Shown one piece after another: positions 38,203 to 64,000 of a DNA stretch of 64,000 nucleotides. This stretch comes from Clavelina lepadiformis (taxonomy: Eukaryota > Chordata > Ascidiacea > Aplousobranchia > Clavelinidae), in the NCBI RefSeq assembly GCF_947623445.1, contig NC_135242.1, positions 19,902,001 to 19,966,000 on the forward strand, written 5' to 3'. A model generated the notes under the pieces. That model searched no databases and was not told the DNA's origin. It saw only the letters and a program-made list of their open reading frames with translations. Position 1 is the first letter of the stretch, and the number at the start of each line of letters is the position of its first letter. Made by a program: the position numbers and the translations under genes.

Positions 38203-39011
38203 CTACACTCGGCGAATCAGCGCTTGCCACACTGTACATAACACATACCTGAATACGTTAAGGCTATATAGAATAGCTTGTTTTCGCAAATTGAAGTTTA
38301 AAGGGTTTACTAAGGTTATTTTATTTTAAGTAGTACAAAAACACATTAAACAGCGACACAAATTAACGCACTCAATAACAACGTATAACAATATAATGTC
38401 GTTCACTCTTTTTCGTCAGTGTGAAGCTAAAACTCTGAAAAAATTAAAAGAAACAAATGTGAAAGAAGCTAAATCCTTAGCCATATTTCGTAATTACATT
38501 GTGATTGCCCGCCATGCAGTAGACACAAGGTATGCACGTGAGCAGTATAAGCAGCATGAGCAGTTTTACCTATTTCATTGTCGGAAATGACTTCATCGTC
38601 AGCAGTTTTAATTATGGCGCGACATGTCCCGCACAAGTAGTTTACACAAGTGTCCCCATCACGTAGTAAAGCGAGTTTCGAGGCACAAGGTTCCTCTGCA
38701 CAAGACACTATGGGAACGCCTGGTGGGCAGTCGTCATCAATGACAACTGTTGGCCTACTTGCTGAAAGTTAAGTGGTTTATGCCGCGTGTTAACTGGCAA
38801 AATAAGTGAAAAATACCAATAAGCTTTAGTTTTAATTTGAATCACTTATCAAGTTTTTGCGTATTTATAAACGTTAGCTTGAAGCTGTTTTCATAATTGA
38901 AACTTACATTTAACGTTTATATCACAGAAAAATCTACGTAATTTTCTACTCACAAGCTGAATGCACTTCTACGATGATGATAAGACACATAAAGATGGCT
39001 ACAATCTTCAT
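38203..39011 (-). CDS. Short secreted protein with one degenerate eight-Cys module (gene U)
   Basis: Exon 1 (39011-38954, 58 bp) begins MKIVAIFMCLIIIVEVHS, a signal peptide, with a perfect GTGAGT donor in phase 1. Exon 2 (38761-38570) joins in frame and encodes a module that begins CPPGVPIVSC. Compared with relatives at 39.8-64 kb it lacks the fourth and eighth cysteines and the CP..P.A.C block. The proposed last exon (38231-38203, WQALIRRV, stop) is chosen only for phase and acceptor and is weak. The full model is 92 aa. A TATA-like element stands about 85 nt upstream. It may be a reduced working gene or a gene in decay; the frame is open throughout. Confidence 0.6.
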
Positions 39012-39093
39012 CTATGTATCTTGGCAAACGTTCTTGATATGAAAGATTTAATTTGGTTTACCAAATACCAGCAACTAACAGGCGATACGAGTC

Positions 39094-39103
39094 TTTATAT
39101 ATA
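39094..39103 (-). promoter_or_regulatory. TATA-like element of gene U
   Basis: TATATATAAA on the minus strand, about 85 nt before the start codon at 39011. This is the same distance as in genes W and X. Confidence 0.5.
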
Positions 39104-39368
39104 CTGCCTCTCTTATTGTATAGAGATACTACCGCTAATATATTTTATCAGTAACAAGTCTTCACGTCTTTATATTGCCCCCCCCTATAGGTAACCTTGA
39201 GAAAGCAAGAAGGTCGGTGGGTTGAGTGATCGCATAGAAATGAATGAATTAAATGTTTAACATTTGATAAGGGCATTATCGACCTACTACAACCTTCTTC
39301 TGCTTTCTCACTACTTCCGTCAATTAAAATCGGTGATTTTCCGCCAACGTATTATGTGCTGACGTAAG

Positions 39369-39394
39369 CTCACGTGAGGGTGGCGATGACGTCA
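39369..39394. promoter_or_regulatory. E-box palindrome and CRE upstream of gene U
   Basis: The perfect palindrome CTCACGTGAG (39369-39378, core CACGTG) is followed 8 bp later by the perfect CRE TGACGTCA (39387-39394). They lie about 360-380 bp upstream of the gene U start. These are consensus bHLH and CREB/ATF sites; use is inferred. Confidence 0.4.
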
Positions 39395-39854
39395 TTTGTA
39401 CAGCTTAAGGAGAAAATATCCATCAGTATCGCTTCACGTATGATAGAGCCTACTGCTCAGCGCGGGTAGCCCACTCATAGAACTAAAGAACAATTACTAC
39501 AAAGCTCGGTTAGATAATTTTGGCATTGCGAGCCTTTTGTGGTCATTGCTGAGTCTTTGCTACGAGTTTGACATCACGTCACATCACGAGACATGTTTGA
39601 CAAGTAGCACATAATGAGTAAAAGCCTATTTACTTCCAGCTTCATAATAATAGATATTTACTAATAAGGCGAAGTCTCTGATTTGTCGCAAAAACAAAAA
39701 TCTGTAGCTGCACCTTGTTCAAACTGAAGTCGTTTTCTCACAGTTGTATTTTTCTGACATTTATCAAGCATGAAAGCCCAAAGGAATTACGCATTTTCAA
39801 GCATAACACTTCTAGTCAATCGGTTTTGCAAACCACAGTCATGCGACTCAAACT

Positions 39855-42800
39855 TTAGGCGTTCTTATCTTTCCGACATCTACTTCGCGCAAAGGTAGAA
39901 GACCACTTGTAGATTTTTCCACTCTTTCGACAGGTCATGCGACTCGGTCCTCGTATGTCGTAATTTTGTGGACAAGTTGCTCGGCACGTCGATCCTTTCC
40001 GGTACTCGTCATCGCAGGAAATTGTTATCAGCGAAAAAATGAGAATATTTTCCAATGAAGGGCATACTTCTTCTACAAAATATTAATCCAATAAAAGATA
40101 ATTGATCTACAAAAATATGCTATAGATATCAAGCCTGACTATGAAGATTGCCCGAATTTGATTTGACGTCCTTTAACTAAATTTTGCTATTAACTACTAT
40201 TAACTAACTAATTACTATTAACTATATTTTTCAACCGGAATAAGATAATTGCAAAATACTCTTACTTATCAATCTACAGGAAAGTGATAGCTAGCACCTG
40301 GTTCACACTGAGATTCCAAAAGTTCATTTCCTGCTTTATCCACAAATGCTGCAGTACATGTTCCGCACCGGTTGACTTTGCATACAGCTTGTCGCACACC
40401 AGGACACCTGGCCACTTCACACGGATTATTGGCACAGTTTACAAGCGGAATGTTCGGCTCACATGTGCCTATGACAAAAATTAAGCCACAAGCAGTGATA
40501 TTAAATAAGTCTGTAGAGTTGGGTTTCGGTTCATTAGTTAGTTATCCGAAACGTGAAGTTACAGTTACCGGTTCTCTGATTACTTGTTTGCAGTACAAGT
40601 AAATTGCCTGTTAATTCACTTGTTACCTGTTGTAAAGGTAATGATTTACAATAGTTTCAATAAAGTTCAAGTAAATTTTAATAACGCCAATCAAATTTGA
40701 ATAAATTCATACAATTTGAAAAAAATTTAAACAAAAATAAATACATTCAAAAAAGTAAAAATAAATTCAAAAAGTTATAAACAAATTCATACAAAATGAA
40801 GTGAATCAGTTAAATTTAAACTTTGTCATAAAGACTTAAAGAAATTCAAATTAATTAATATCATCAATAATCTTCATATCAACTGGAAAACGTTTACTAA
40901 AATTAAAATAAAATCATATAAAGGTATATGCATACAAAAAAATGAAACTTAAATAATGTGAATAATTTAAAATATATTTAAGACACATAAATTCATATAA
41001 AATGAAACATATTCAAAACGAAAAGTATAGTTTTCAAAAATTTGTTTAATAAATCTAAATAAGAGTTTTGGTACTGAAAGCAGTGCAATACTACAAAAAA
41101 GATTCTGTAAATAACAATAAGAATAACATTAGAAGTGTGATATATTTAAATAATTGATTTTAATGATTTAAATTAAACTTGTTTTAAATTATTTTTACAT
41201 TTAAATTTTTTTAAATACTTATTTTAAATTATTTTTACATTTAAATTTTTTTAAATACTTATTTTAAATTACATAAACTTCATCAAATTTATATCAATTT
41301 ATTTAAATTTATATTAGAAGTGCATTGGGTATGCGAAATCTGTCAGTGTTGATTAATCAAAGCTTAATTAAACCAGTTTGCTATGAGAATATTGAGAAAA
41401 TTATTTATTATGAAAACCGATTTTTGCCAGAAACCGAAACCAGTTAGTCGGAGAAAATTACGCAGGACCAGTTATTGCTTATTATCTGCCAGATAATCTG
41501 TTCAACATTAAAAATATTTAAATCTAACTAAATTTAAATAAACTCGTATAAAGTTTTTTGAATTTATATAAAATAACTGGAATTCATATAAAATCGTTTT
41601 GTATAAACTCATTCAAATTACATTAATTTAGTACAAATTTCCAAATTTCCAAATTTCCAAATGTTTTATGACTTTATTTGAATTTGTCTAAATTTGTGGA
41701 ATTTTATATTTTTTGTAATTTATATTTACATTTTAAATTTCTATAATTTTATTCAGTTTTACGCAAAATGCTATGAATATTGTTTTAATCATGACTTTTA
41801 AATAAATAGCAAGTGGTTTAGTAAACAGCTTTTTTGAACTGCGAATAAGCAATTGAATACGTAACCAGGAAACAGGTAACAAATTTCATCTGCAAATAAA
41901 TAACTGATCAAGTACCTATGGAACCGGTAACTACCTTCACAGTTTGAATAAACAACTAAATAATTAACTAAGGAACCGGTAATCCAGTTCAGAGCTGTCT
42001 AATTTATAAGGCTATTATATGACTTTAAATTAAAAACATTTATTCTAAAGCAATCAAAAAATTCTAAAGTTCTACCAGTCAGTAAATTTGATGTCTTTAT
42101 TGTTCTCACAATTTTGTTTTGAAATAACGTTTCCGTCCCCGTCAGTGAATGTCGCAGTACAGGCTCCGCAGTAGTTTTCTGTGCACGTAGCTTCGGGATA
42201 ACGCGGGCACCTTTCAGAATCGCAAGGTCTTGGACGGCATTTAACCCTGGGTGCGTATGCTGGGCAGTTGTTGCCTGCAAGACAAATGCAGACTGCCGTT
42301 ATTTTGTTGATTCAGCTTTTGTTGTTTGAAGTCAAGAACTGTGTTCGGGAGTGACCGTCATGACATTGTTGTGCTGGCCGTTAAAATGTAAGGCTTGCTA
42401 TAAATTTTAGGCAAGGGGCGCACATTCTTTGAAAACTCGTAATCAAATAATACTCTCATAACCTTGAACGAATAAATTATTGCTTACAGATTTCATTTTG
42501 ACTAAATACTTGCGAACATGAACAAACAGTTAATTTAAAATAGAATCTTGTTATGTAGCCAGAGGCAGCATGATCAGTGTAAGCTTTTAATACAGTTTAG
42601 TGATTCATGTTTGCAAAAAGGGGAATTTGACTGCGGTGAACTAAAAACATTGCCTAACTAAAGCAAGCCAATAGATAGCGACATGATATTTCTTTGAATA
42701 ACATCGACAAGCAAGCGCTAAAATCAAAACACGATTTTGCTTTATTGAGCAGATTTGCAGCTGCAAGAGTACGTATGATGACAATAATTATGGTTTTCCG

Positions 42801-45101
42801 TAACCTCTTCTCTGTAGAACGCATTGTGTATGAGCAAATGATCCTGTCCACTGGTATCTTTTCCCACGCTTTCGACAATTGATACGTGACGGTCCACGCA
42901 AACTATGGTTCGCCGGACACTTTAGTTTGCAAGTTGATCCAACTCTGTTACCCTTGCTGCAGGTGATGCTTTTTACCGTTGAATGTAAGGTGCGGTAATC
43001 GAGGAGTTTACATGTCGATTCTGCAAGAAAAAAAAATCTAAAATTTCTGACATTCAGAAAGGGGTTTGTCTAAAACCAAGTTGTTAATTTGTTGTTACTT
43101 GTGACATCCGACTGACGATAAATCAACATTGCCTTGAGAAAAACGTGCGCGACCTGGTACCTGGAAGTCGACATTGCTCTTCGGTAAGGACATGTCCGAT
43201 TCTATCCGTAAAAATGGCGCTGCAACTTCCACAATAATTGTCTATACACCGAGCTTGTTTTACTCCAGGGCATGAGGCGGTATCGCAAGGAGCGGTTGTG
43301 CAGCTTACAAGTCTAACTCCTGGTTCGCATTTACCTGCAACGATCGGAAAACAATGTACACGGAAAAACACAAATTCGTTCATGGAGACTCTGTAAATAT
43401 GACCAATATTACCGATGACAGTAAATGATGCCGAAGGCTGAATAATACCAGTGACCGTATAAATACATCGTACATCGCATACATTATCTAACGCAGGTAG
43501 CAAATGAGCATCACATGATTTAAAAAACTTACACTTTTCTTCTGAAAGAATGTTGTCATCAGCGTCGGTAAAAATTGCGGTGCAAGCTCCGCAGTTGTCA
43601 TCAGTGCAAGTTGCGTTCGGGTATCGGGGGCATTCTGCATTCCTGCATGGACTCTTAGGACATTTGACTGCTGGTTTGCTGGGAGGGCATTCTTCCTCTA
43701 TAGACGCATATTTAAAGATCATTATCTGTTTGCAATATGAATCATTTGCTTATATACGCACTATATGTGCGCTGAACACTAATTTATCAAGTTCAATGGC
43801 CATTGCATTGAAACTAAGCAGAATATTTTACAAACAAAGGATTAGTTATAGGCCTACACCACTCTTGTTGCGAGTATGACAAATTTCTAAAGTGAACAAT
43901 TTTGCTATACGGCTCATTACAACTGTTATAGCTGTTGGGAAACACTCAACCTCTTAACGAGAAGATCTGTAGTGATCAAAAGTTAACTTAACAAAAAACT
44001 ACTTTCAGATCAAGTTTTTTACAAAATGCTTAAACCTAAATGGCGCTGCAGATATTTTCTTTTACCTACGGTTTCACATCGTGGTCTTCGTATCTTTGGT
44101 GTCCATTTGCCCTTTCTCCAGCATCGGACGACTGTAGGACCTTTTTCTAAATGTTGTCCGACAGGACATTGTAGGAAACACACCGACCCAATGTTGTTGC
44201 CCTTGGTGCAAAAATAAGTAAACGCACCTAGGGCAGCACGGTCGTCTAGCGATGGACATAATTTTCCTGCAAAAGGTTGAAACCACAATAACGGGAATGT
44301 GCGAAATGTGGAATGTTTAAATTTAAAAACAATAAAAATATTTTGTTAAAATATGAAGAACACAATTGTTCATATTTTTTTTAATGGAGCTTGTTTTATA
44401 ATCACATTAATCATTGCAAAAATATTAAGGTTTTACGTTGTGGGATTGAAGATGGTATTAAAATCAGATATACGAAACAAAATTAACATATTAACAATTT
44501 ACTACTAATTGTGTTGCATGTGCTTTACCTTCGTTACACTCTTTTTCAGTTAATTTCCTTCCTCTGCTGTCGGTAAACACGGCATTACAGCCCAAGCAAT
44601 AGTCATTTGTACAGGTAGCGTCAGGCACTGCTGGGCACTCGGCGAATTGACATGGTTCGTGGAAGCAAGTGAATATTGAAGACGGAGGACAAGTCTCTGA
44701 AAGAAATAAGCACATTTCACTTTTTATTTGTTAAACATTGCAGCTTTAAGCTTTATTAGTAACAGCTATGTCTTTTCAATCCAGAAATTTAGGAAATCGT
44801 GCTATACTCTATACACTGTATATATTATGTCACTTCTTTGTTATGTTGTGTACTTGACTGCTATGGCCTTTTATTGTCACACGTATCACAATACGCGTAA
44901 CAAGTTTTGATTTTACTAAACTATATGCCCATGAATTGCTATGGTTTACTAATTATGACACTCAGTCACTATATGAGACCAAGTCAAGCAGAAAACATAC
45001 CGGTATAGCCTGCTAGTAGTGTTAAAACAGTTTAAGGCCAATAGTATCACACCTTGGCATTTAACTGTCCAAATCAGAAGCAACAAAACTGAAAACTTCA
45101 T
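39855..45101 (-). CDS. Secreted modular protein, five eight-Cys modules and three CCP-like modules, 508 aa (gene V)
   Basis: Nine exons: 45101-45053 (signal peptide MKFSVLLLLIWTVKCQ), 44696-44529, 44266-44066, 43697-43533, 43334-43161, 43020-42805, 42274-42110, 40468-40298 and 40072-39855. All introns are phase 1; total 1527 nt. Order is 8C, CCP, 8C, 8C, CCP, 8C, 8C, CCP. Each 8C module follows C-x(6-8)-C-x3-PC-x4-CP..P.A.C-x4-C-x2-C then C, e.g. CPRYPNATC and GACTAIFTD. CCP modules have six cysteines with GS.C..(Q/K/T)CP.....(G)P...C, like selectin-type sushi. At both 8C-8C joins a Cys codon is split across the intron, T|GT and T|GC. The donor at 42805 is the weakest. The 1.6 kb intron at 40469-42109 holds an inverted-repeat element. 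Confidence 0.75.
40505..42005. mobile_element. TIR-flanked AT-rich element in gene V intron (non-autonomous DNA transposon, family uncertain)
   Basis: Long imperfect inverted terminal regions. The left end (from about 40516, GAGTTGGGTTTCGGTTC then TTAGTTAGTTAT) matches the complement of the right end (GAACTGGATTACCGGTTCC then TTAGTTAATTAT, ending about 41995). Both sides then have inner GTTACCGGTTC and TTTGCAG blocks. The core is about 1.2 kb of AT-rich sequence rich in AAATTCA/TTTGAA-type words, with no coding frame. The exact borders and any target duplication are unclear. A related sequence (GGTTACTTATTCGG, TTATTCGCAG) lies near 30310-30380. Confidence 0.55.
41181..41262. repeat. Two tandem copies of a 41-bp AT-rich unit
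   Basis: Exact duplication of a stretch beginning ATTTTAAATTATTTTTACA, inside the AT-rich core of the intronic element. Confidence 0.75.
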
Positions 45102-47100: not shown

Positions 47101-47123
47101 ATTAATAAGTGGCACAGTTGTGT

Positions 47124-47129
47124 TTTAAT
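47124..47129 (-). terminator. Possible poly(A) signal of gene W
   Basis: ATTAAA on the minus strand, 31 nt beyond the stop. Confidence 0.45.
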
Positions 47130-47159: not shown

Positions 47160-48131
47160 CTATCCTTTGATGTAACCAACATTAACACATCCGGTCCCAC
47201 AAGCTGTCCGGCAACACATTTGTCCATGAGGGCAATATTTCGGGCAAACTGTTTGCATTATACAGAACTCCTTGGTTGGTGGTGGGCATTGAAAAGCTGA
47301 ATAAAAAGTTGTAGTTTAAGGTGGCATGTACGACATCTTTATAGTGCTAAGCCAAAGGTTATAGGCAACAACTTACCGTTGCACTCTTCCTTCGATATTA
47401 TTCCCTTGATCTTGTGGTGGAATATTGCGTGGCACCCGCCACAGTAGTTGTCAATGCAAGTTGCATCCGGCACGGCCGGGCATTTCGTGACTGAACATGG
47501 CCGAGCGAAACAGCGTACGAGTGGGATATGCGGCGGGCATTTTGCTGCGAATAAAAGTGACGGCGCTTTTCAGCATGAGATGATAACGACTTCGACACTG
47601 TTGTAAAAATCTTCTGCGTTTGGTATCTAGTTTTAAATTATAAATGTGCACATAATCCTACATTCACGTAATATTCGTTCCATTAATTCGCTTAACGTTT
47701 ACACAGGTTTAAATTTGTTGTTGACTGCTGCATACTAACTTGGCAAACAAACTGCCGCTTGTGGATTATTAATCCAGAGATAATTTTCGCATCTTGTCCA
47801 CTCTGGGCCGCGTAGGTAATAACCAGAAGGACAATAAAAGCGGCAAACCTTGTTGAAGCAAAAGTACTTCACTGGAATAGCGGGAGGGTCAAAGTCTGTT
47901 CGAATTGGCGGCCAAGAACATGTTGGAATTAAACCTGTAATTATAACACGTCGTTGAATGAGCTAACAAAATTTTGCATTACAGGTTATTTTTTTTTAAA
48001 ACTTTGGATACGCCAACTCTTTCAACGCTACATATAAACCAATAGCAGTGTAACACATTACAACTAGTCTTACCTTCGCCGAAAACGATGCTTGCCAGAA
48101 GTATTGTTAAAATAACCAACTTCATGATCAT
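47160..48131 (-). CDS. Secreted CCP / eight-Cys / WAP protein, 185 aa (gene W)
   Basis: Four exons: 48131-48074 (58 bp, signal peptide MIMKLVILTILLASIVFG), 47934-47740 (CCP-like, ending GPEWTRC then AVCLP), 47544-47377 (eight-Cys module with CPAVPDATC and GGCHAIF) and 47296-47160 (WAP-type core: VCPKYCPHGQMCC, RTACGTGC). All introns are phase 1; total 558 nt. Two in-frame ATGs stand two codons apart. The first is taken because it makes the exon 58 bp, as in genes U, X and Y. A TATA box lies about 80 nt upstream, and ATTAAA follows about 30 nt past the stop. This is the smallest complete three-cassette member. The WAP core suggests a protease-inhibitor or antimicrobial role, by family only. 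Confidence 0.85.
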
Positions 48132-48215: not shown

Positions 48216-48219
48216 CCTG

Positions 48220-50550: not shown

Positions 50551-52442
50551 TTAACCAGCTTGCGGTGTCGGTGGATCTATAAAAGAAAACAGTTTAACGC
50601 TGCATTTGATGGTGATTGCCGTTGTTATAAACTTAGAATGGATTATGCGCATATTTATTAAACACTAAGAACTAGATCATAGATATTGTCTAACCATAGC
50701 ATTGTTTGGAAGTTAAAACAACTTCGTTGAGCTTGAAGTAGAAATTGCAACCGGTGCAGAAGTCGGGAACACAGGTGGCAAGCGGGAAATTTGGGCATCT
50801 TGCCACGTATGTAGCGCAAGGATTCATAAAACAGGATGCTGGCCGCCTGCATCTCTCACACTTTGTGTGGACGAGGCTGGGCGGGTTCCACTTCAACATT
50901 CTGCCACTGCCCTCGCATTTGATGGTTGAAGGTTCTCCTATCAACCTTGCTCCTGGATCGCAGTAAGAGACGCACACTGACCCCAACATATAGTTCTTGG
51001 TGCATCGAACCTTCACGGAAGGTTGACGAATTACGCTTGGCGGACAAATTGGAACTAAATGTGAAAAGGTATGAAAAGAAAGGAACGTTGTAAAATAATT
51101 AAGTCTGTATGACAGAATTAAAGTACTTATATTTCATCTATAAGTTATCATCATCTGCAATGCATAAAAGCAAATACTCAAAACGTTTCCAAACGAGACT
51201 TCAGAAAAATAATAATGAACCACTGTAAAAACAAGCAGAATGTTTAAAGTGATGAATTTGCGTACCTGGTAACATTGGTCCGGGGTCATCTTGAATTAAT
51301 GGATGGACGCAGGTATAACCGCATCGGAACCTTGGACAGCAGATTTTCCCATCTGGGCACATCGAGGGACACTGGGAAGGACAATCATTGCCCGGCTCGT
51401 GTTCCAGATCTTGCGGAGGACACATGCGATTGACTATTTGGACTGGAAATTCACCATGAAAAACAAAGCATGTTACACTTCTTTCCAACCGCTTATGCTG
51501 GCCACTGTACGCTTGATGTTCATTACCTTTCTTTCTGCATTGATCGTGTGGTAGCGCGTTGCCTTTGTCGTCCAAGAAAATTGCTTTGCATCCATCACAG
51601 TAGTCATCAACACACTCAGCTGTAGGGACTGCCGGGCACCTCCTGATCTTACATGGTCTTATAAAGCACAAGTGGGGAGGCTTACTGCTTGGGCATTCGC
51701 GGGCTGGTGAAAATATTGAAATAAAATATCAAGGTTAGCCTAAATCGCTTAAAATCGCTCTTAATTTTGGTGTTACTTTCTACAGTACAAGCTTAGTTCA
51801 ACGTTAGATCCTTTCAATGTTTCTTTTCTCCTAGACCGTGCAGTGTACCTACGTGCGTTTATTCCTGAGCATTGCTGGCTGGTAAGCACGTTTTTCTCGC
51901 TGTCTACGAATTTGTACCCGCAGCGACAGCGCGTGGGTATACAGACTGCCTCCGGTCGTCCAGGGCATTTCGCCTCTTCGCAAGGATCTCCAATGCATGG
52001 AACATGATTTTGACCGTAACAGCACTCGTAGTCAGACAGCTGGTTTCCACTCTCATCCGTGAAAACGGCCATACAGCCACCGCAGTATTTGTTTGTGCAT
52101 TTGGCGTTTGGATAGGCCGGGCAGGTTTCGATGTCACAAGGCCTTGCCAAACAATTTTTTTTGTCCACTTCATTTGGACACTCTGTTTTGAAAAGTTTTA
52201 TTTTTTAAGATCTTATTTGTTCAATTTTAAAACAAAACCAAAAATGTGAAACAGCGTTGAAGCCTAATAACGTTGTAGTATGTAATAATAAAACTTAACA
52301 GTTACACTCAAAGGTACATAAGATTAAATACGTTTAAATAAGATTAAATAAGTTATACTACCAAACGCAGAAAATTCTTCTTACCGAGGGCAAGTGCTGT
52401 TTCTTCAAGAAAGCAGAAACTTAGCAGCAACACAAGCTTCAT
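50551..52442 (-). CDS. Secreted eight-Cys / WAP / CCP protein, 375 aa (gene X)
   Basis: Six exons: 52442-52385 (58 bp, signal peptide MKLVLLLSFCFLEETALA), 52182-51853 (two eight-Cys modules: CPAYPNAKC then CPGRPEAVC with CRCGYKF), 51703-51527 (one eight-Cys module, CPAVPTAEC), 51442-51266 (WAP-type: CPSMCPDGKICCP then CGYTC), 51054-50695 (CCP-like then an eight-Cys module, CPNFPLATC) and 50576-50551 (DPPTPQAG tail). All introns are phase 1; total 1128 nt. A TATA-like TATAAATA lies about 93 nt upstream and AATAAA follows about 110 nt past the stop. The last donor (GTTAGA) is not ideal, and without splicing the frame would stop one codon later, so the tail is the least certain part. Confidence 0.85.
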
Positions 52443-53397: not shown

Positions 53398-56300
53398 TCA
53401 TCGTCCTAGGAAGGAACTTAATAGCGATCCTGGAAAATAATTTTATCTTTAGAACAACTAAAATCTGCATCTTTAAATTACACGGTTCATAATTTTTTGA
53501 ATATCACATGTCGTCATACGTATACATAAGAACGCTCACTACACTTACCTGTGTTGAAAGAACTGGAGCTACAGAAATTTCGAGGTATTTTCAATCCACC
53601 GAAATAGAAGTTGTAGGAGCAGGTACAGGGGTCAGGTACACAAATGGCGCCTGGGAATGCTGAGCAAGTTCGGAGACCACACAAATTCGTGTTGCGAACA
53701 AGACAGTTCGCTAGGTTCGAGCACGACCTACTGGTTGTAGTTGGCCTAACTTCGCATTTTGCATTAGTTAATGTACCCTGTCTCCAAGTTGGCGCTCTGC
53801 GAGTGAAGAAACCAAAAGATCCCAGGCACTGCGTTCGTGCAGGTCCGCCAACGAGCGTTTGACCATCTGGACATTTTGCTATACATGTTGAACCTTGTCG
53901 GTCACCGTTACTGCAACTTAAGGTGAATTCGATATCTGCTTTTGGATCGACAACTGGTTCGCAAGTAGACACTGGCAAATAAATAAAATTGTTGAAATAA
54001 TTTAAGGATAGTTTGTTTGCTACAGCTTAGCAAAGGTAACAAAAACAAAGCATATAAAAACTAAATTATCCACAGGCACCAAGTCAGAATCTATTCCACT
54101 GTTACCTACCTGGGATGGCGCAGAATTGCTCGCAGTTCCTGGGGCAACAAATTCGGCCTCTTGGGCATTGCTGTGGACAAGTTTGTGAAATTCTAGTGCA
54201 GGCAATTGGGTAAGATGTTTGACTGCACCTCCGATCTGCAAACCAGCTAGTAATTATAAAAGCACTATTTGTTTTAAAGTTTATCCTCTGTAACGTTGCT
54301 CATTCAAAAGCAATAAAAAAGTTAATTTCATCACAAAATGTTGTTGTAAACAAATTACAGAAGCTTAATTTTTGGTAAAAAAACTGGTTCTAAAGATAAA
54401 GTTTTGCAAATGACGCCTTTGTTGCATCAATTGCTTTTAAAGCTGAGGGTTTACTTACCAACAGGGAAGCATTGTTGCATAGTTACTACATTTCCACTGC
54501 TGTCAACAAAAGTAACTCCACAGTCACATCGGTTAGGGAAGCATCGTGCATCAGGAACCCCTGGACAAGAAGCAGTTTGACACCTGTTAGCGGCACAAGT
54601 CAGTGCCGGTAGATTCGGACAACATTGAGAATCGCTCAAAACGATGCCCCTCCTGTCCCTGAAGACAGCACTGCAACCGCTACAGAAACTGTTAATACAA
54701 GTTGCGTCTGGCACTCCAGGGCACGATGCCAACAGGCACGGTAACGGAGAACATGATGCCTGTGGTTCATCTGGTCGACATTCTGTAAGCACAAATGGAT
54801 GGAAGCTTATGAAAGTTAGCTTATTGCATTCGCATTTTTTATTTTCTACAAAATATAAATCCCGTTATAACTTTGTATAAGAAACACTTTGTTTATTCGT
54901 ATGTTTTAACGTGTTTCTTTTGATTTCCCAATTCTGTTAATATTTTCCGTTGTCTACAAACTATATTCGTGTATAGTGTCTATATACCTGCATTATAAAA
55001 CAAACGTGTGCACGTGCACTATGCAATGTTCATTGTTTAACTATTAATTAATCGTGATTCTCACGTATGCGGTTGCATTGGTCATCGGTTAGTATGCTTC
55101 CTGCGCTGTTTACAAAAGTAACTCCACAGTCACACCGATTAGGAAAACATTGTGCTTCTAGCACCCCGGGGCATGACGCTCTTTGACACCTGTTCGAAGG
55201 GCATGAAAGAGCGGCTAGGTTGGGACAACATCGAGAATCATCAAGCTCATTTCCATTACTGTCTCTAAACACGGCGCTACAGCCATTGCAGAAGTTGTTG
55301 GTGCATGTAGCGCCAGGTACTCCAGGACACGTCGCCAGCAAGCAGGGTAACGGGCGGCAGGAAGCCACAGGCACGCCGGGTGGACATTCTACGTTAATTG
55401 AAAAAAAATCAAAAGTTAAAGCCTTAAATATGTGTATCCAAGACAATTTAAGTCAATTTTTGTAGCAAATAAATCTGTCGCACATATGATTATTGCAGTC
55501 CCTTTTGAGAGGACATACGTTTTCAAGATCTACATACACGGTATATTGCATATGTCGTACCGTATTACATGCAGACAAAAATACCTGATTGCGGTTCATC
55601 ATCACGGTTACATTCTTGTTCTGACAAGAATCGACCGGTTTCCACGTTGTAAAATCTAACTCCACAATCGCATCGATTCTGAACGCAAAGAGCGTTGGGT
55701 TCACCGGGACACGACGCTCTTTCGCACCGGTTTGCAAAGCAGGAAAGCGTCAGCAAATTGGGGCAACATTGAAAGTCGTTTAGTTCATTCCCTCTCCTAT
55801 CAATGAAACTGGTACTGCAACGTCCGCAGAAATTATTTCTACAAACTGCGTCAGGCCTACCAGGGCAGCTGGCTATCCGACAAGGCAGAGGTAGGCAGGT
55901 AGCCACTGGCGTTCCAGGAGGACAATCTGTGTAAAAAGTGGTTTTAGTTGGTGCGACAATATTGCATAATCTAAAGAAAAACAGCGATGTTTGATTTCCT
56001 AACATCGTTAGTAACTTCATTTTTTTTAATTCCCTTTAAATTGCAAGCGATTTTTCTCCTTTGTTGTTTTGGAAGCAGGATATATTAGAATTATTAGCTC
56101 CTTTGAAAAAGGACACCTCGTGGGCTTTGATTTCTTCTTATGACTGTAATGAATAAGTGTCACTATCGCTATAAAAAAAAACGGATAAAGAAAAAAGCCA
56201 ACATACACAGTCAAATTTTTTTTGACAAACTTTAGCAAGAAAAATAGTCTTCACTAAAATCTAAAGTTGGTTCGACTTTGCATTGAAACTGAGTACAGCT

Positions 56301-57059
56301 GCCACTCCAAACGTTTATGCATTTTAAATGTTTGCATCTATACGCTGGCTTTATGTAGTTACTCTGTTTCTTTTTATATTTGTCCTTAACATAAAGTAAC
56401 TGTACTTATTGTAAGTGCTTACCGGTACACGCAGCAAATGCTATGTTAATACAACCAAATTTTTCTTGCCATTTTGAAAAAAGACTAAGTTATACCATAT
56501 TGTCATATTTCATAAATCCGCTTGGGCAACATTTTGCGCTATTTTGCCGTTGGCGATTAGTAGACGATACTATTGTTACGTATGGGGAATGGGACTGAAT
56601 GGTGAATAGAACCGACGTTAAAATGCGGTGTGGCAGTTAAACTACTGCATACGCAGACCGCGTATTTTCACGATCGCTGATATCTCTTTGCTAAGATTTT
56701 CATTAAAGTAAAACCTTTATAGAAATTAATAAGATTTAGCCGGTAATCAATGACATAACTATATTTTGGAATTTCCTGTTGCGTGGGACAGTAGCGCCAG
56801 AGAGTGGACGAGTTGGTCAAATGTGTTTAAACTGAAGGATGTATTATTAGTTATTACGGAAGCCTAAATCCACATAAGGATCTTAAGATTACGGAAAATA
56901 TGATGAATTACTACGCTTAAATTTTTTCGCTGCTGTTATTGTCACATAATAAAAACTTAACACTTTTTTTCGCAGGCATACATTTACCCAAGTTGACTTA
57001 CTTTGTCCGAAGACTTTTACCACCAGCAAACTGCAACAAATGAAAAGCAGAAGATGCAT
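53398..57059 (-). CDS. Secreted modular protein with triplicated double eight-Cys exon, WAP and CCP, 542 aa (gene Y)
   Basis: Seven exons: 57059-57002 (58 bp, signal peptide MHLLLFICCSLLVVKVFG), 55926-55585 (342 nt), 55388-55065 (324 nt), 54782-54459 (324 nt), 54235-54110 (WAP: CPQQCPRGRICCP), 53971-53549 (CCP-like plus a divergent eight-Cys module) and 53429-53398 (short tail GSLLSSFLGR). All introns are phase 1; total 1629 nt. The three long exons each code for two modules: an a-type (CPPGVPVASC, then CNGCSAVFRD in exon 3) and a b-type (CPNLAALSC, then NRCDCGVTF). Exon 3 reads to a stop at 55048 if unspliced. A GTGAGA donor at 55064 gives it exactly the 324 nt of its paralogue, so splicing on is preferred. 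The terminal exon is chosen on acceptor strength and phase. Confidence 0.8.
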
Positions 57060-57099
57060 TTTTCCTGATTTTTTTGCAATTTATTACAAAACTAAACTT

Positions 57100-58768
57100 C
57101 TAATAGCTTTCTTTCGGCTTCTCGACCCATATAACTGAGTCTTATCAATAATCGTATCGGCAAAATTAACAAAAGACAACGCCCGAGGCAAAGAAAAGCG
57201 CTGAATGCTCTCTATAACTGGAGGGCCCGCTACCTTGAGGGTGGCGGTACTTGGAGCGCAAATCTTCGCAGCGTGAGAAATACTTTGCACGTCACTCGCT
57301 CGTCGTCATATAAAGTGTACGTATTATTGCAACGTAGTTTGAAAATTGATAATGCTGCTTATTTATATTAATGTTTAATTTTAATCTTTTTTGTTACAAC
57401 GTTTAATTATACTAACAATGTTTCACGTTGGGAGTGTTCCGGAAATTTGCAGAAGTTTGCATTCGTATTTCGCATATTTGTCTACATGTACTGTTCTCTG
57501 TATTCATATTTGTGAATAAGATTTTCAAAAAAGCTGCTTTTCGTAAAAGAACCACTTTGTTGTTTGATCTCCTTTTTATAAGTTCAGGATTTTCAAATAC
57601 AAAAATTGATTTGCCCTGCAGTCAAAACAACTAAGATAGTTTATTTTTTGAACTTTCTCTGCAAGGTTAGGTGGTATAGTCCAGTGGCCACTACTATGTT
57701 GTTATAGGCTACCGCAAAACCTGACCTGCGGACTGCGGTTGTGTTCGTTTTCCGGCTAAACCCGTATAATTATTACCTAATTAAGTGATGCAAAGTATTT
57801 TTAAGATCTTGAAGTTTTTCCGTGTTTATCAACTCGTTTAGTTAGTTAAGGCAGCAAAGAAGCATAACATGTAATTCTTGTGCAATTGCAGAAATTTGAT
57901 CGAAAAATGGTGACATAGTGTTGCTTTGCTTATATACTTGCAAGTAATCACGCTGGAAAAAGCATTTTAAAGTTATAATGCAGTATGTATATAAAGTAAC
58001 TTACAAAACACATTAAATTTTTACCGACATATTGAAGGTCCGATATTTGCGCCTAACGTACTGATACTTAAAATGCTGTAACGAGTCACCATATCCAACT
58101 GTTACCACAAATTAAGGCGGTTAGATGTAATATATACATACAGCATGGAAATCGATTTGTTGATGTCGGATATCGATTTCCGGTATTCTATTTTATTTTA
58201 ATAACCTTTCTTTTGTTCTATTGCGTTCTCAATTATTTTTTACCATCTCACAAACCTGATTACTATCAATTTGTTGAAACAGCTCAACCTACAATGAAAT
58301 TTTTTTTATTGATTTGCTTATATAGAGCATAATTATATTGTAAAAGCTATAATGTGAAAAAACTTTGTTTTCGATGATTTCCTATTTGGTCGACATAATT
58401 CGATCGTTTTTAGTATTGAAACACACGTTCTGGAATATTGAGAGCGACGACGTGACCAGAAGCACCACGACAATGATTTGTTTGTATATTTTAACAACTT
58501 TGATTATGTTTTTAGGTTTGCCGTTCTCACCTTTGCTTTGGCCTTCGGCACTCTTGCCTATTTAAGATTGATTTTGTGCTCCACACACACTTTGTGCGTA
58601 CATCTTTACGTCACTCATGACCACATTCCCAGCATTCCAGATTGCCGGTTTTTATTGTCCTGACTAGCGTCGTTCAGAAAAAGGAGAGGTTTTTAAGTTT
58701 CTTCTGACGTAGAGCGTCTTGCTGTCACGGCACCCTCTCTAGATTTCAGTTTACGTTTGTGTTGATTA
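57100..58768. other. Intergenic, no gene seen
   Basis: Upstream of gene Y. Plus-strand frames at 57428-57634 and 58365-58663 are hydrophobic but lack splice, start or domain support. Confidence 0.45.
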
Positions 58769-60592
58769 CACTACGTAACACAATTTTTGTTTGGCTACTT
58801 TTTTTAATGCCCCTTTATGTATTTTTGGGTGCTGAGTTCAAAAATCCAGTTAGTTTTTTCGTACCATCGTTACTTTTTGAGATATTCAAATTTTGATATA
58901 GCTGTAAGTACAGCAAATCGTGTTCTACTCTTGCAGTAGATTTTAGCTCCACATCAAGGTTCTGTTTGGTTTATTAAACGCAAAAACCAGTTTAAAAACG
59001 TTAATAAGGAAGGCTTGAAGATAAATGTAACATAGTTTTGTCAAACAGTAAGAGTCGTTCAAAAATGTACTTTTGAGCGAGTTTTTCTTTTATGACTACT
59101 CCTGTCTTGCCTTACTAAAGACCAAATGTAGTTTCCCATCATTACACTATCCCAGCGGCCTTTATATCGTTTTTCCATTGGCTCAATATCCTGATGAAGT
59201 CTCTCACCGCGCTCCTCACTGAAATCACGTAGATTTTCTTGAAAAAAATCCAGATGCGGACATAAAAAATGAAGTTTGACAGACATGCGACAACCCATGT
59301 TTTGGTAACTTTTGATCAGTTTCTCCACCAACTCTTTGTAATTTCTGTCCCTTTTATTTCCCAAAAATCCATCAACCACACCTCGAAATGCTTGCCACGC
59401 TTCTTTTTCTGTTTCATTCATTTTTTCTTCCAAGCTTTTACACTTTAACATTGTGTTTATCTGAGGACCAACAAATATTCCTCCTTTTATTTTGGTAAGT
59501 GATGGTCTGGGAAACATTGAACGGATTTCTTGAAAAACTTGTCCTTGAAAATCCAAAGCTTTGACAAACTGTTTTACCAGACCTAATTTGATATGAAGTG
59601 GAGGCAGTAAAACTATTTCCCGGCTTACAAGAGGTTCCCTAATAACGTTGTACATTCCTGGGTTTAGTTTTTCCCGTGTCGGCCATTAATTTTCTCATAG
59701 TGCTCACCGTCAGCTCTACTATTCCACAAGCACAGAAAGCAAGAGTATTTTGTGTAACCACCCTGCAGACCAAGCAAAACTCCCAACATTTTAAAGTCAT
59801 CACAAACATACCACTTAAACTGAGTGTAATTGATTTTAATGAGCAGTTGCTTGACGTTTTCATAATCTTCTTTCATCTGTAAGGAATAAGCAAGTGGAAT
59901 TGATGGGTATATGTTGCCATTGTGAAGTAACACTGCTTTAAGACTTTTGGTAGAACTGTCAATGAAACGCCGCCACTGAGTAGGATCATGAATTATTCCA
60001 ACAGCACAAAACAGGCCTTCCACATATTTGCAATAGCAAAGGTCTTCAAAAATGTCAAAGTAGACAGAAAACTCCAAGTGCCTATTCCTGTGGGGTAGGC
60101 AGTACTCTTACTTAAATTGTTTCACTCTCTACTAGACATTTTGATTTCTACTATTTAAAAGATGAACTGAATCTAAGATTTACACAATACTTAACTGTAC
60201 AAAATGTAATTATATGGCATACTTCTCTCTGTAAACACTAAACATGACTTTCTAATGAGACTATACTGAATTTAACATAAATAGATAAAATGAAAACTGA
60301 GATAAGAAATAAAAGCACATTCGTCTGCATTTCAAACTCCCACTCCCATTCACTTTCTCAAGTAAATAGGACGCCCATTTACAACATGATAGTGCTGACA
60401 GACACAGATCATAACCGCATAAAATACCTACAGTTAATGGAAAATCACAAAAAACGGAAATTTTTGTATTTTGAAAACGATCGATGATAGAAAAAAACTG
60501 ATAGCATTTTTGAAATCAGCGCTTGAAAATCATACAGTTACACTTAATAAATGTAGCCAAACAAAAATTTTTTTTAATTTTGTTACGTAGTG
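58769..60592 (-). mobile_element. TIR DNA transposon (about 1.82 kb) with decayed minus-strand gene
   Basis: The left end begins CACTACGTAACA then ATTTTTGTTTGGCTAC. The right end (60553-60592) is its inverted complement with one A/T-rich insertion, giving TIRs of about 30-40 bp. TTA flanks both sides, a possible 3-bp target duplication. Inside, on the minus strand, two open blocks in different frames (60077-59664, 59655-59059) encode one continuous-looking protein with LQGGYTKYSCFLCLWNSRAD, LLPPLHIKLGLVKQFVKAL, IKGGIFVGPQI and HLDFFQENLRDFSEERGERL. I recall this as a protein common in repeat-rich animal genomes but do not know its superfamily. No complete gene is left, so the copy looks inactive. 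Confidence 0.75.
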
Positions 60593-60931
60593 TTATCTCT
60601 TATCATTATTATTTGTCATCTCCTGTATATAGTAGCCGCGGCTCTATTTTTTGTGGTTATTTCTACCCACTTTTCTTTATAACTGATTAGTTTATCGCTG
60701 GGTTTCTACCGTTGTTTTTATTACATCTCTTTTAATCTTTGTGGTGCCACGACTCACCGTTAATGTGATAACGAACTTGGCAAAAATGAATGCAGTCATG
60801 AGGGCGCTCCTAAAGAACAGCGGTCGTGCCCAACTTTGCCTGTTATTATTTTTGAAATTTTTTTTATTCATAACCATCATTTAATTACCAGGATTGCGAT
60901 TCGCTTCTGTTTCCATTTTCATTTTTTCATG

Positions 60932-61078
60932 TCATTTAACATTTCCCTCCGCATCTTTAAAAATGACATTGCAACCACCGCAGTAGTTGTTTGTGCAGGG
61001 CGCATCGGGTCGTCTAGGACACTGAGCAACCGAGCAAGGTGCAATGACACAGTTAACCGACGGCTGAGCAACAGGACA
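60932..61078 (-). pseudogene. Orphan eight-Cys module fragment
   Basis: An open frame of 48 codons plus stop reads as the module (CSVAQCPRRPDAPCTNNYC, then GGCNVIFKDAEGN). It stops before the last Cys, has no acceptor at the expected position just before its first Cys, and has no neighbouring exons within 1.5 kb. It is best read as a relic of a lost gene of the array or a stray exon copy. Confidence 0.6.
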
Positions 61079-61401
61079 CAGAAAAGGCAAAAACAAGCTT
61101 GTTGAAATAGAATTATTTATTTATTTCGGTTAGTGGATTGCTTTTTTCTATACCGAATGTTGTTAAAATAACTTGATTTAAATCATGGCAAACAAAGCAA
61201 GATCATATTGCATAAACATTCTGAACCATTCACACCATTCATTAAACGTCCTTTGTCGCTATCTTAGGAAACATTTGTATTCAAACTTTCAATAATAACA
61301 TAAACACAATAAAAATTTAACTTAACACTCTCTGAACAGTCTAAAGTCTAAAGCTAAACCATGAAAGGTATTAGTTGATACTATATATTATATAATATAA
61401 G

Positions 61402-61782
61402 TTAGGTCGTTCTGACGTTTTCGCCACTAGAAGGCAGCAAATCATCAATACTATATTCATGATATGATATGTCATGATATGATGACTGTTGTAAAGATAT
61501 AAATGTGCTGGTTTGTATTGTAATATATATCCGCTTCATGTCACTTAGCATTGGCGGTTCTTGCTTTCTTTCACTTTTCGCAAAGTGATTATCATTTTCA
61601 CTGTACGCACCTATTGCTGGTCCCCAACCTGTAAGTAAGATGCCAGAAACTCTTCTATTGGCCTCTACTGCTTTGTTGTCTTGGCAGAGTAGCTTGAGTG
61701 CTTCGATGAACTTTCGAGCTACACCGGAGGAAACTTTGTTTTCAATGGGACACCCATACCAGGTCAGGTCGAAAATAAGAGG
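61402..61782 (-). CDS. Open frame of 126 codons without a start, unrecognised
   Basis: Open from just after a stop at 61783 to a stop at 61402, with no early ATG. Protein-like sequence includes WYGCPIENKVSSGVARKF, LLCQDNKAVEANRRV and GILLTGWGPAIGAYSE. Further on it becomes low-complexity. No good acceptor was identified before it. It may be an exon, a mobile-element piece or a pseudogene. Confidence 0.35.
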   Translation of the reverse strand, partial: PLIFDLTWYGCPIENKVSSGVARKFIEALKLLCQDNKAVEANRRVSGILLTGWGPAIGAYSENDNHFAKSERKQEPPMLSDMKRIYITIQTSTFISLQQSSYHDISYHEYSIDDLLPSSGENVRTT

Positions 61783-62632
61783 TCAGATTCGTCAGTCGTC
61801 AGAGATCAGTCGTTATGGGCGGTTAGCCAAACTCATGACACGTTTCATTTGGTACAAAAAAGATTTGAAATAAACGTGACAGAATGATGATGAAACGTTT
61901 TGAAGTATCCTTTCAATCTACCAACTATTAAATGCCAAACGACCTACAACGCCTTTCGTTGTGCCAAGCGGTTACTGGATCCTCGTTGACACACCAGCTT
62001 AATTTTTCCTTACCTGCTTAATTCATGACTCTTGGTGTTTCAGTCTTACTTAATATTTGTTTAAACCTAAACGTCTATATTTAGTATAGTTCCGACCATT
62101 TTTGCGAAATTCCTTGCACGCAGCCGAGGAAAACAACGAGGACGCTTTGTAGTGATCTTTCAAAACAAAATCAACAAAACATGATCAACATGATCAACAA
62201 AATTAAAGATATTGCTAATAAAGTTGTGTTAAAATTCGTATAACATGGAGTTTCGATTATTCCAGCGTTGGGATTATAAAGTTACAGAACTGCTGAGATT
62301 TTACGAAAATTGGTTTTAAATTACCACTGTGACCATATTGTGACCACTGTGACCGATTTTTTCATGCATGTTTTTTTGTTTGTTATGTTTGTCTGAGTAG
62401 ACCATACTTGCCTAACTGTTGCGCATGCACTGCAAGTTTTTCTTTCTTGCTTACCGCCTTTTTGTAGTTATTTGTTTTTAACTAGATCAACCACAGCATG
62501 ATTCCTGTTTCTCTTCTGTAATATTTTTGAACAACACAAGTAAACGCAACAACTATCTGAACATTGTTCATGAGATCATAATGAAACAACACAATATTTT
62601 ACACGAAGCCTGTTACGTCGGTGTTATGGCAG

Positions 62633-64000
62633 CTAGTGGCATTTCACCCTGCGCAGTGTGACGGGATCGTAAAACTTGGGTACACAAAAACAAGTTGGTT
62701 CACAGATGGCATCTGGATAAGCAGGGCACTTGGTATTGCGGCATGCCAACTTGCAGTTCTCGTTTGAGCATAACTCTGGAAAATGTGTACGAAATTAAGG
62801 GGTTTTTGTTAAGTAATTTGTAGGGTGTAACATTTTATGCCTTTGCTTTTCGAGCCTTGTTTTCCTGCCAAGTCTAGGAAAGGGCTTTAAGTATTACAGC
62901 AAATCAGGTTACGTATATGTACGTTTACAACAATTATAGCATAATCTGAAAGAATTTCTTACTTTCAATACAGTCTCTTCTTGACAATTTTCGAGGCTTT
63001 CCATTTTGCAAACGGTAAAAGTCAAAGTCGCATCCTCCGCAATAGTTATCTCTGCACACGGCATCGGGATAGGCCGGGCATCTTGCACCCCGACAAGGAG
63101 GATAAGCGCATCTCACCTGCGGCGATCCCGGAGGGCATTGGTCTATCTTGACACAGATGGAGTTTGTGAGGTCGCTTGGATTCCACATCTCGTTTCTACC
63201 GCAGACAATTTGCGACACTCCAACCAGCTGTAAACCTTTTCTACAAGTCGCAGTGCATTTTGAACCAACATAACTTCCGTGAGTGCATCGCACTCTAAAA
63301 TTTACAAAGGCTCTTGGATCTACCGGAGGAGGACATTCTGTAAATGTAAAAAGAATAACCTTGTAAGCTTGTTTATTATAGATATGGTAATTTTGGAATG
63401 TAAACTTACCTAACGGTTCAGTGCATATTGAACCACAGCCGGCTGGACAACATATCTGGCCAAGTTGACAATGGTCTGGATTACACATAGGACATCTTCC
63501 AACAAATCCGCGGCGAGGCGGACAGCGAGGATCTACGCAAGCATAAGTTAGCACATAGCATGCATTTAACACCATTGGAATGATTTTCTTTCAGTAATTG
63601 TTTCAAAACTCTTACCTGGTACACATTGAGTTGTCCCTAAACTTGGAACCCAGTGACCATTTTCTCTACATTTTGAACTGGCAGGACCTTTGACCACTTG
63701 ACCAGGTGGACAGTTGATTGTACAAACTGACCCGATGTTATTGCCATCGTTGCAGGTGTGTGGTAAATTTGTATTTAGTGGAACGCAGTGAGGAAATCCT
63801 ATAACCGTAGAAAGTTTATAAGATTATGATAAAATGACATATTTGTGTACAAGTATAATGTATCCATGTCCGAACCTAGCTTAAATAACATATTGCTCTT
63901 ATCTCTCTTAATATGCTATTCACAATTTCTTGGTTTAGCAAACATCAGTTTTACCTATTGGGTAAGAGCACGTTGAACCGCAGCCAGTCGGACAACATAT
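62633..64000 (-). CDS. Secreted WAP / CCP / eight-Cys protein, 5' part outside window (gene Z)
   Basis: Five exons seen: 64000-63955 (end of a WAP core: CCPTGCGSTC), 63798-63616 (CCP-like: NIGSVCTINCPPGQ), 63532-63410 (WAP core: MCNPDHCQLGQICCPAGCG), 63337-62963 (CCP-like then an eight-Cys module, CPAYPDAVC and GGCDFDF) and the terminal 62775-62633 (short eight-Cys variant ending VKCH, stop). All visible introns are phase 1. At least two WAP and two CCP units alternate here, and the two WAP ends are very similar, pointing to internal duplication of a WAP-CCP exon pair. The signal peptide must lie beyond 64000. Confidence 0.85.

What the first reader, a model, noticed from the sequence alone, without database searches (positions are those of the whole stretch)
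38203..64000. A one-strand array of secreted proteins built from three phase-1 Cys cassettes
At least six neighbouring minus-strand genes (U, V, W, X, Y, Z) mix the same three exon cassettes in different orders: an eight-Cys module, a six-Cys CCP-like module and a WAP core. All introns are phase 1, so any cassette can be added, lost or moved without breaking frame. I do not know a named domain for the eight-Cys module, although I recall similar sequence beside WAP and Kunitz domains in other invertebrates. This looks like a lineage-specific family expanding by exon shuffling. A defence or antiprotease role is inference from WAP only.
Basis: partly seen in the sequence, partly recalled or inferred. 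Interest (0 to 1): 0.8.

Follow-up and report, generated by a model that had tools for sequence, protein, structure and literature searches.

The report
Tandem secreted cysteine-mosaic gene array
An animal genome carries a row of about eleven neighbouring genes for secreted proteins, built by repeating three small cysteine-rich building blocks, one of which has no name in the domain library that was searched and may be distantly related to a marine-snail enzyme inhibitor.

Summary
From about 38.6 kb it runs 21 kb past the right edge: ten minus-strand signal-peptide exons, 41 eight-Cys modules (21 in the window; one relic and one degenerate copy included), 13 WAP-like and 14 sushi cassettes, plus a divergent plus-strand gene. 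Best-scoring flanking splice sites are phase 1 for 48 of 57 acceptors and 50 of 57 donors. The eight-Cys module has no usable Pfam match. AlphaFold2 folds it confidently (pLDDT 92); Foldseek finds no solved relative. Its best small extracellular sequence match is the snail carboxypeptidase inhibitor NvCI: Cys spacing, a CPxxPDAxC loop and an aromatic agree, but E is 1.1-1.6. This is a lead, not membership. Modules cluster by type, not by gene: ordered duplication with cassette gain and loss, rather than free shuffling. New: all 8 WAP cassettes preceding the 8Cc subtype have a ninth Cys, as do all 8 partners; 5 of 5 other WAPs have eight. A stapled WAP-8C unit is predicted. Function is inferred: secreted multi-headed inhibitory or binding proteins.

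The parts
38571..39011 (-). Gene G0: signal-peptide exon 39011-38954 and a degenerate eight-Cys module 38729-38571 without Cys4 and without a Cys at the place of Cys8
39858..40468 (-). G1: 8Ca module 40463-40305 and terminal sushi 40064-39876; no signal exon found in 40.5-42.1 kb
42072..45101 (-). G2: signal peptide, 8Ca, Sushi, 8Ca, 8Ca, Sushi, 8Ca; ends ...QNC-ENNKDIKFTDW-stop; 397 aa model
47160..48131 (-). G3: signal peptide, Sushi, 8Ca, WAP-like; 185 aa model
50690..52442 (-). G4: signal peptide, 8Ca-8Cb doublet, 8Ca, WAP-like, Sushi-8Ce; C-terminus ...SKQC-Y-G-stop; 368 aa model
53514..57059 (-). G5: signal peptide, three 8Ca-8Cb doublets, WAP-like, Sushi-8Ce; strong donor at 53549 suggests one more 3' exon
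60935..61475 (-). G6 relic: signal-peptide-like ATG with no donor found and a truncated 8C module (61078-60938) lacking Cys8
62633..64000 (-). G7, 3' part (the gene starts beyond the window, at 65878 in window coordinates): Sushi, WAP-like, Sushi-8Ca, terminal 8Cd ending ...RVKC-H-stop
43171..43329 (-). A typical eight-Cys module (8Ca), acceptor 5 bases before Cys1
62970..63137 (-). 8Ca module in one exon with a sushi module (63335-62970)

Best explanation
A tandem multigene family for secreted proteins made almost wholly of small disulfide domains. Shown from sequence: a signal peptide followed in the models by 3 to 13 domains of three kinds (8C, six-Cys sushi, WAP-like) bounded by phase-1 introns, ordered duplication of whole genes and of two-exon units, and degeneration at the left end. 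Inferred: they are released at an epithelial surface as multi-headed binding or inhibitory proteins. Inferred with less certainty: the 8C module is a distant relative of the mollusc metallocarboxypeptidase inhibitor NvCI (predicted pairs C3-C5, C4-C8, C6-C7, with C1-C2 added), so that a C-terminal 8C module with a very short tail after its last Cys could plug a carboxypeptidase as NvCI does, while internal modules serve as spacers or bind other targets. In the right-hand genes each WAP-like cassette and the next 8Cc module are predicted to be joined by a disulfide.
For: Array and genome counts. Phase. Signal exons. Full-length models. Sushi named by Pfam in 5 of 8 array cassettes tested. WAP-like: (the only PDB match of the WAP profile is the WAP protein nawaprin, E 0.069). 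NvCI lead: listed in the PDB by three module profiles; hhalign score 26.3 with the 47-module profile against at most 20.7 in 600 shuffles of NvCI; 7 residues between C4 and C5 in 48 of 48 rows with C4, as in NvCI; F four residues after Cys7 in every row of A2 and A3 where NvCI has W42; the degenerate G0 module lacks C4 and C8, the pair predicted from NvCI C15-C51; in the model one strand spans Cys5 and the next starts after Cys7, as described for NvCI. Tails: G4 ends C-Y-G, NvCI ends C-Y-A.
Against: NvCI E-values are 1.1-1.6, i.e. about one such match expected by chance per search; it ranks third of 3, fifth of 6 and first of 2, and the alignments cover 19-28 residues. The A6 profile scores lower by hhalign (22.4, no shuffles run with it). 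Three single queries do not find NvCI. Foldseek with the pLDDT-92 model does not list NvCI among 50 matches with E up to 10; the second, weaker model lists Trop2, EpCAM and follistatin at E 6-10 instead. The C6-C7 loop is 0-4 residues against 10 in NvCI. The aromatic is Y in G11's 8Cc and is replaced by I in G0. Other terminal tails are 11 (G2), 4 (L036) and 4 with a further Cys (L039) residues. Two 8C modules lie near EGF and VWC exons elsewhere in the genome, which suits a matrix role. No expression data.
Confidence: 0.4

Rival explanations
1. Structural extracellular-matrix, cuticle, mucus or adhesive proteins: the cysteine-dense domains act as rigid cross-linkable beads and the resemblance to inhibitors is incidental.
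For: Very high Cys content and few glycosylation sites (0-2 NxS/T per model); purifying pattern in the pairs that could be scored; 8C modules near VWC and EGF exons on another chromosome-scale contig; WAP and sushi domains occur in limpet adhesive proteins (PMC7333891, passages); a limpet shell-matrix paper that holds the word WAP was seen in a listing only (PMC3374290).
Against: The models are ordered strings of distinct domains without low-complexity stretches that I noticed (read by eye); composition was not tested.
Confidence: 0.3
2. The 8C module is a new animal domain unrelated to NvCI; the shared CPxxPDAxC is convergence in a short loop, and its function is unknown ligand binding.
For: Chance-level E-values and no NvCI in the Foldseek lists.
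Against: Six-Cys register, aromatic, strand positions and the joint absence of C4 and C8 in G0 agree with NvCI.
Confidence: 0.4
3. Innate-immune effectors (crustin-like antimicrobial or pathogen-binding proteins) expanding under an arms race.
For: WAP-like plus sushi domains, tandem array.
Against: dN below dS in the 5 of 12 pairs that gave a value by either method (for example 0.239/0.897) and no dS by NG86 in 10 of 12; an antimicrobial signature was not sought.
Confidence: 0.15
4. Growth-factor or BMP modulators, 8C acting like the VWC domains it sits near on contig C1.
For: VWC and EGF exons within 10 kb of two 8C modules.
Against: No VWC or EGF match in the array proteins that were given to Pfam.
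Confidence: 0.08

Closest known systems
NvCI, Nerita versicolor metallocarboxypeptidase inhibitor (PDB 4a94, 5mrv)
   Same: C3-C8 match its six Cys in order; 7 residues between the second and third Cys; CPxxPDAxC loop; aromatic four residues after the fifth Cys; strands either side of the fourth and fifth Cys; very short C-terminal tail in G4 and G7
   Different: Two extra N-terminal Cys, C6-C7 loop shortened, tandem in mosaics, no significant sequence or fold score
WAP four-disulfide core domain (PF00095)
   Same: Central CC pair and, in 5 of 13, eight Cys; nawaprin is the only PDB match of the profile
   Different: Below the Pfam cut-off; short C2-C3 loop in most; ninth Cys in 8 of 13
Sushi/CCP domain (PF00084)
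   Same: Pfam score at or above cut-off in 5 of 8 array cassettes tested
   Different: Six Cys rather than four (counted: six in 12 of 14; in the other two my end coordinate stopped just before the last Cys seen); selectin sushi domains also have six (recalled)
SCREPs, secreted cysteine-rich repeat proteins (PMC6262176, passages)
   Same: Secreted proteins of several disulfide domains in a row
   Different: That survey assigned its domains with InterProScan, and the passages name known domain types; here the main unit has no Pfam name

Membership tests
NvCI family of metallocarboxypeptidase inhibitors | Significant sequence similarity | tested here: not met
   E 1.6, 1.1, 1.4 for three profiles; hhalign above 600 shuffles with one profile, but for a single chosen comparison
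NvCI family of metallocarboxypeptidase inhibitors | Same fold | tested here: inconclusive
   Strand positions agree but Foldseek lists no NvCI; the finer aligner was not available; no direct superposition was made
NvCI family of metallocarboxypeptidase inhibitors | Three disulfides C9-C23, C15-C51, C27-C38 | tested here: inconclusive
   Order and spacing fit except the C6-C7 loop; one degenerate module lacks both members of the predicted C4-C8 pair
NvCI family of metallocarboxypeptidase inhibitors | Two-residue C-terminal tail that enters the active site | tested here: inconclusive
   Apparently terminal 8C modules: tails of 11 (G2), 2 (G4), 1 (G7), 4 (L036) and 4 including a Cys (L039) residues; in G4 a weak donor is also present
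NvCI family of metallocarboxypeptidase inhibitors | Inhibits M14 carboxypeptidases | not testable with these tools
   needs protein
WAP four-disulfide core | Pfam PF00095 above cut-off | tested here: not met
   0 of 5 cassettes above cut-off, 3 of 5 listed at E 0.041-0.18 over profile positions 5-38; the genome search with PF00095 lists 2 places, none in the array
WAP four-disulfide core | Eight Cys with CC pair | tested here: inconclusive
   CC pair in 13 of 13; exactly eight Cys in 5 of 13, nine in 8 of 13
WAP serine-protease inhibitors | Inhibitory loop of SLPI/elafin length between C2 and C3 (8 residues, recalled) | tested here: not met
   Of 13 cassettes: 2 residues in 8, 3 in 2, and 5, 6 and 7 in one each
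Sushi/CCP | Pfam PF00084 at cut-off | tested here: met
   5 of 8 array cassettes: 31.1, 25.1, 20.7, 22.5, 26.4 against a cut-off of 20.7; the 43.0 kb cassette 20.3; no match for those at 54.0 and 51.0 kb; one cassette of the plus-strand gene 29.9
Any named Pfam domain for the 8C module | A Pfam model above cut-off | tested here: not met
   20 members of A2 scanned, four families with one member each, best E 0.093

The most novel reading that the evidence does not exclude
The eight-Cys module is an unnamed animal domain family homologous to NvCI, and this array encodes multi-headed, two-class inhibitors in which C-terminal 8C modules block metallocarboxypeptidases and repeated WAP-8Cc pairs are locked by an inter-domain disulfide made from the odd ninth Cys of each partner.
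Probability: 0.22. Interest if true: 0.75.

Novelty: new variant of a known kind. Interest (0 to 1): 0.48.

Why it matters
The main building block of a large secreted gene family has no Pfam model, yet is predicted with high confidence to be a compact domain that Foldseek does not match in the PDB. If the NvCI link holds, an inhibitor described, in the papers seen here, from two species of one snail genus (PMC5511257, PMC9966942) would belong to a modular family, and the C-tail mechanism could be tested on terminal modules. The paired ninth cysteines give a concrete, testable inter-domain disulfide.

Tried and rejected
Rejected: chance ORFs (profile E-values); Kunitz or other named domains besides sushi and WAP in the array (none matched by Pfam above cut-off among the array proteins given); viral or prokaryotic relatives (close-relative scans with one module found none; tblastn of one doublet against phages, no match); chemokine-like fold (Foldseek E 1.5 or more, TM about 0.3); Trop2/EpCAM/follistatin likeness of the weaker model (E 6-10), kept only as a remote lead; ribosomal S12, RNA polymerase subunit P, zinc-finger and antifreeze-protein matches of the module profiles, judged Cys-composition matches although some of them outscore NvCI. 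A conserved 3' exon was sought by comparing seven downstream regions pairwise, without a match. Motif strings were sought in paper texts without result. PHROGs gave only matches of E 0.04 or more for 2 proteins. Papers: PMC6780499 (passages and part 1 of section 11), PMC5511257, PMC9966942, PMC6262176 and PMC7333891 (passages); all others only as search listings. Literature searches made; in their listings I recognised no named domain that is this module, which is no proof of absence.
Full report
WHAT IS THERE. The window is part of a 25.7-Mb contig (C3:19902001-19966000) of a 209-Mb genome held without a name; its small-subunit rRNA is eukaryotic, and animal is my inference from the domains. 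On the minus strand from about 38.6 kb to the right edge lie cysteine-rich exons that searches list as open frames. A regular expression for the eight-Cys module gives 17 minus-strand hits and none on the plus strand; 16 are modules (aligned as A1) and one is a WAP cassette. I fetched the next 39 kb and scanned the joined stretch with a profile of those 16. In window coordinates the minus-strand array runs from 38.6 to about 84.7 kb. My module list has 49 rows: 41 on the minus strand of the array (21 of them inside the window, a relic and a degenerate copy included), 1 in a divergent plus-strand gene starting at 85469, and 7 elsewhere in the genome. A whole-genome search with one module gives 38 matches at E up to 10, 31 in this cluster and 7 on C1, C2, C6 and a second place on C3; other module queries give no further clusters. 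The tool calls such counts lower bounds.

GENES. One search lists, on the minus strand, signal-like ATGs with a phase-1 donor; ten stand before cassettes and are used (39011, 45101, 48131, 52442, 57059, 65878, 71346, 77959, 82110, 84674). Two others (82296, 91291) were set aside, the first because 82110 lies nearer and looks the better signal, the second because no module follows. Of three plus-strand candidates only 85469 precedes cassettes. Joining each of nine to the following cassettes at the best phase-1 sites gives frames without internal stops: G2 397 aa, G3 185, G4 368, G5 543, G7 615, G8 at least 527 (open), G9 763, G10 204, G11 259 (G0 was not joined). Architectures: G2 8Ca-Sushi-8Ca-8Ca-Sushi-8Ca; G3 Sushi-8Ca-WAP; G4 (8Ca8Cb)-8Ca-WAP-Sushi8Ce; G5 three (8Ca8Cb)-WAP-Sushi8Ce; G7 WAP-8Cc-8Ca-8Ce-Sushi-WAP-Sushi-WAP-Sushi8Ca-8Cd; G8 WAP-8Cc-(WAP8Cc)-8Ca-8Ce-Sushi8Ca-8Cd; G9 three WAP-8Cc pairs-8Ca-8Ce-Sushi8Ca-Sushi8Ca-8Cd; G10 WAP-8Cc-Sushi; G11 WAP-8Cc-Sushi8Ca. 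Run-together names mean one exon. The models hold 3 to 13 domains. In G8 the second WAP and 8Cc are continuous where the other seven pairs have an intron in the models, as if the intron had been lost precisely. The joins are predictions; some sites are weak (for example the 43697 acceptor and several donors), and the G9 model carries one doubtful donor (76621). A sushi-like frame at 89675 has no good splice sites and is not counted among the 14 sushi cassettes.

PHASE. For 57 cassettes I asked which phase holds the best-scoring splice site within 75 bases: phase 1 for 48 acceptors (7 phase 2, 1 phase 0, 1 none) and 50 donors (3 phase 0, 2 phase 2, 2 none), p about 3e-15 and 2e-17 against one third.

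SUSHI AND WAP. Of eight array sushi cassettes given to Pfam, five score at or above the cut-off, one just under it, and two (in G4 and G5) are not matched. All appear to have six Cys: one search counts six in 12 of 14, and in the other two my end coordinate stopped just short of the last Cys seen. No WAP cassette tested passes the Pfam cut-off (0 of 5), and the genome-wide Pfam WAP search at E 0.001 lists only two places on C8; still, the only PDB match of a ten-cassette profile is a WAP protein (E 0.069). The loop between their second and third Cys is 2 residues in 8, 3 in 2, and 5, 6 and 7 in one each of 13; SLPI and elafin have 8 as I recall.

HOW THE ARRAY GREW. On a tree of the 49 modules the type labels (8Ca, b, c, d, e, sushi-linked, dispersed; assigned by me before the tree) need 9 changes (least possible 6, shuffled mean 29.5, reached in 0 of 200 shuffles). 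Gene labels, 17 of them, need 35, no better than shuffled (mean 36.7, as low in 31 of 200). The tree has 53 columns, few supported forks and warned of long branches, so only the clustering is used. Types c and d are each one side of a supported branch; a, b, e and sushi-linked are not. Thus whole genes were probably copied with their order, and two-exon units (WAP-8Cc) and doublets were copied within genes. Twelve pairs were compared for dN and dS: NG86 gives no dS in 10 of 12, which I read as saturation; the G7 sushi pair has dS 0.115 and dN 0.016, the G7 WAP pair dS 1.3 and dN 0.27. YN00 failed for 8 of 12; the three doublet pairs gave dN/dS of about 0.27, 0.46 and 0.34. The two sushi exons of G7 are 96 percent identical although the neighbouring intron and WAP exon are far more diverged, which looks like local gene conversion. 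Expansion is therefore mostly old.

THE EIGHT-CYS MODULE. No Pfam family at a useful E-value, none in NCBIfam for the four proteins given. AlphaFold2 on the window alignment A2 (20 rows) gives mean pLDDT 92.2 and pTM 0.67, with strands at 29-33, 39-44 and 48-50. Foldseek against the PDB returns 50 matches, none with E below 1.5 and none NvCI; against viral models none below 1.9. A second model, of the shorter 8Cd type, is weaker (77.7; the five models range from 52 to 78) and returns five matches with E 6-10, from Trop2, EpCAM and follistatin.

THE NvCI LEAD. Profiles A2, A3 and A6 list NvCI (4a94_C) at E 1.6 (third of 3), 1.1 (fifth of 6) and 1.4 (first of 2); the entries above it are ribosomal, polymerase and zinc-finger proteins, which I set aside as Cys-composition matches. 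As a yardstick, the WAP cassettes reach their PDB relative only at E 0.069, so short Cys-rich profiles score low in general. The NvCI sequence scores 26.3 by hhalign against the 47-module profile, the best of 600 shuffles 20.7; with A2, A3 and A6 it scores 25.1, 24.7 and 22.4 (no shuffles). NvCI was picked from a large library, so this is no independent proof. In NvCI the disulfides are C9-C23, C15-C51 and C27-C38, W42 packs between two of them, and C27-C38 links the end of strand 1 to the start of strand 2 (PMC5511257, passages). Mapped on the module this predicts C3-C5, C4-C8 and C6-C7, with C1-C2 additional. Agreements: exactly 7 residues between C4 and C5 in 48 of 48 rows that have both; an F four residues after C7 in all rows of A2 and A3, where NvCI has W42, though G11's 8Cc has Y and G0 has I there; the degenerate G0 module lacks C4 and has no Cys at the place of C8, if its predicted donor at 38570 is used. 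Disagreement: 0 to 4 residues between C6 and C7 against 10. NvCI acts through a two-residue tail Tyr-Ala after the last Cys (PMC6780499, part 1 of section 11). Five apparently last exons end in an 8C module: tails are 11 (G2), 2 (Tyr-Gly, G4, though a weak donor scoring 0.5 exists), 1 (His, G7), 4 (L036) and 4 with a further Cys (L039) residues. In G8 and G9 a donor follows two residues after the last Cys and the end is unknown; in G5 and G11 a donor also follows.

PAIRED NINTH CYSTEINES. Every WAP cassette that precedes an 8Cc module has nine cysteines (8 of 8) and every 8Cc module has nine (8 of 8, counting the 77.5 kb copy from its second Cys, where an acceptor TTTAG lies directly before the exon); the five other WAP cassettes of the array have eight. 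The extra WAP Cys splits the C4-CC loop at a fixed place and the extra 8Cc Cys is also fixed. The pairs are related by duplication, so this is one inherited arrangement, not eight independent events, and all eight lie beyond the right edge of the window. Odd numbers on both sides make an inter-domain disulfide the simple expectation; pairing between molecules is the alternative.

FUNCTION. Signal peptides and all-disulfide domains make secretion likely. An inhibitory or binding role at a body surface is my best guess; NvCI itself is found on the surface and gut-facing regions of its snail. The WAP argument is weak here. Matrix or adhesive roles remain close rivals, and two 8C modules lie within 10 kb of VWC and EGF exons on C1, though whether they share a gene was not shown.

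Noticed in passing
window 59059-60107 (-): Open frames of a mobile element inside the array, between G5 and G7; the 147-aa frame has 150 scored matches across the genome (910 candidates), more than twenty of them at 90 percent identity or above.
   Followed up: partly
window 63623-64373, G7 sushi exons (- strand, partly beyond the window): Two sushi exons 96 percent identical while the adjacent introns and WAP exons are strongly diverged: local gene conversion likely.
   Followed up: partly
L036 4189-5390 (+) (C3:15.83 Mb): A dispersed compact member 4 Mb away: signal peptide, WAP-like, 8Ca, Sushi-8C, tail of four residues.
   Followed up: partly
L038 (C1:20.74 Mb): Two 8C modules near VWC and EGF exons, possibly one large matrix gene.
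   Followed up: partly
window coordinates 85469-87600 (+), beyond the right edge: Divergent plus-strand gene: signal peptide, 8C, three sushi-like cassettes (one tested with Pfam); it breaks the one-strand rule.
   Followed up: partly
L001, L002 (C8:17.03 and 17.31 Mb): The only two places that the genome search with Pfam WAP lists at E 0.001, both over its cut-off; similar to each other, one with a canonical-looking sushi stretch.
   Followed up: no
window 30604-30676 (+), 30890-30962 (-), 32710-32782 (-): Three tRNA genes, two of them an inverted pair with equal scores.
   Followed up: no
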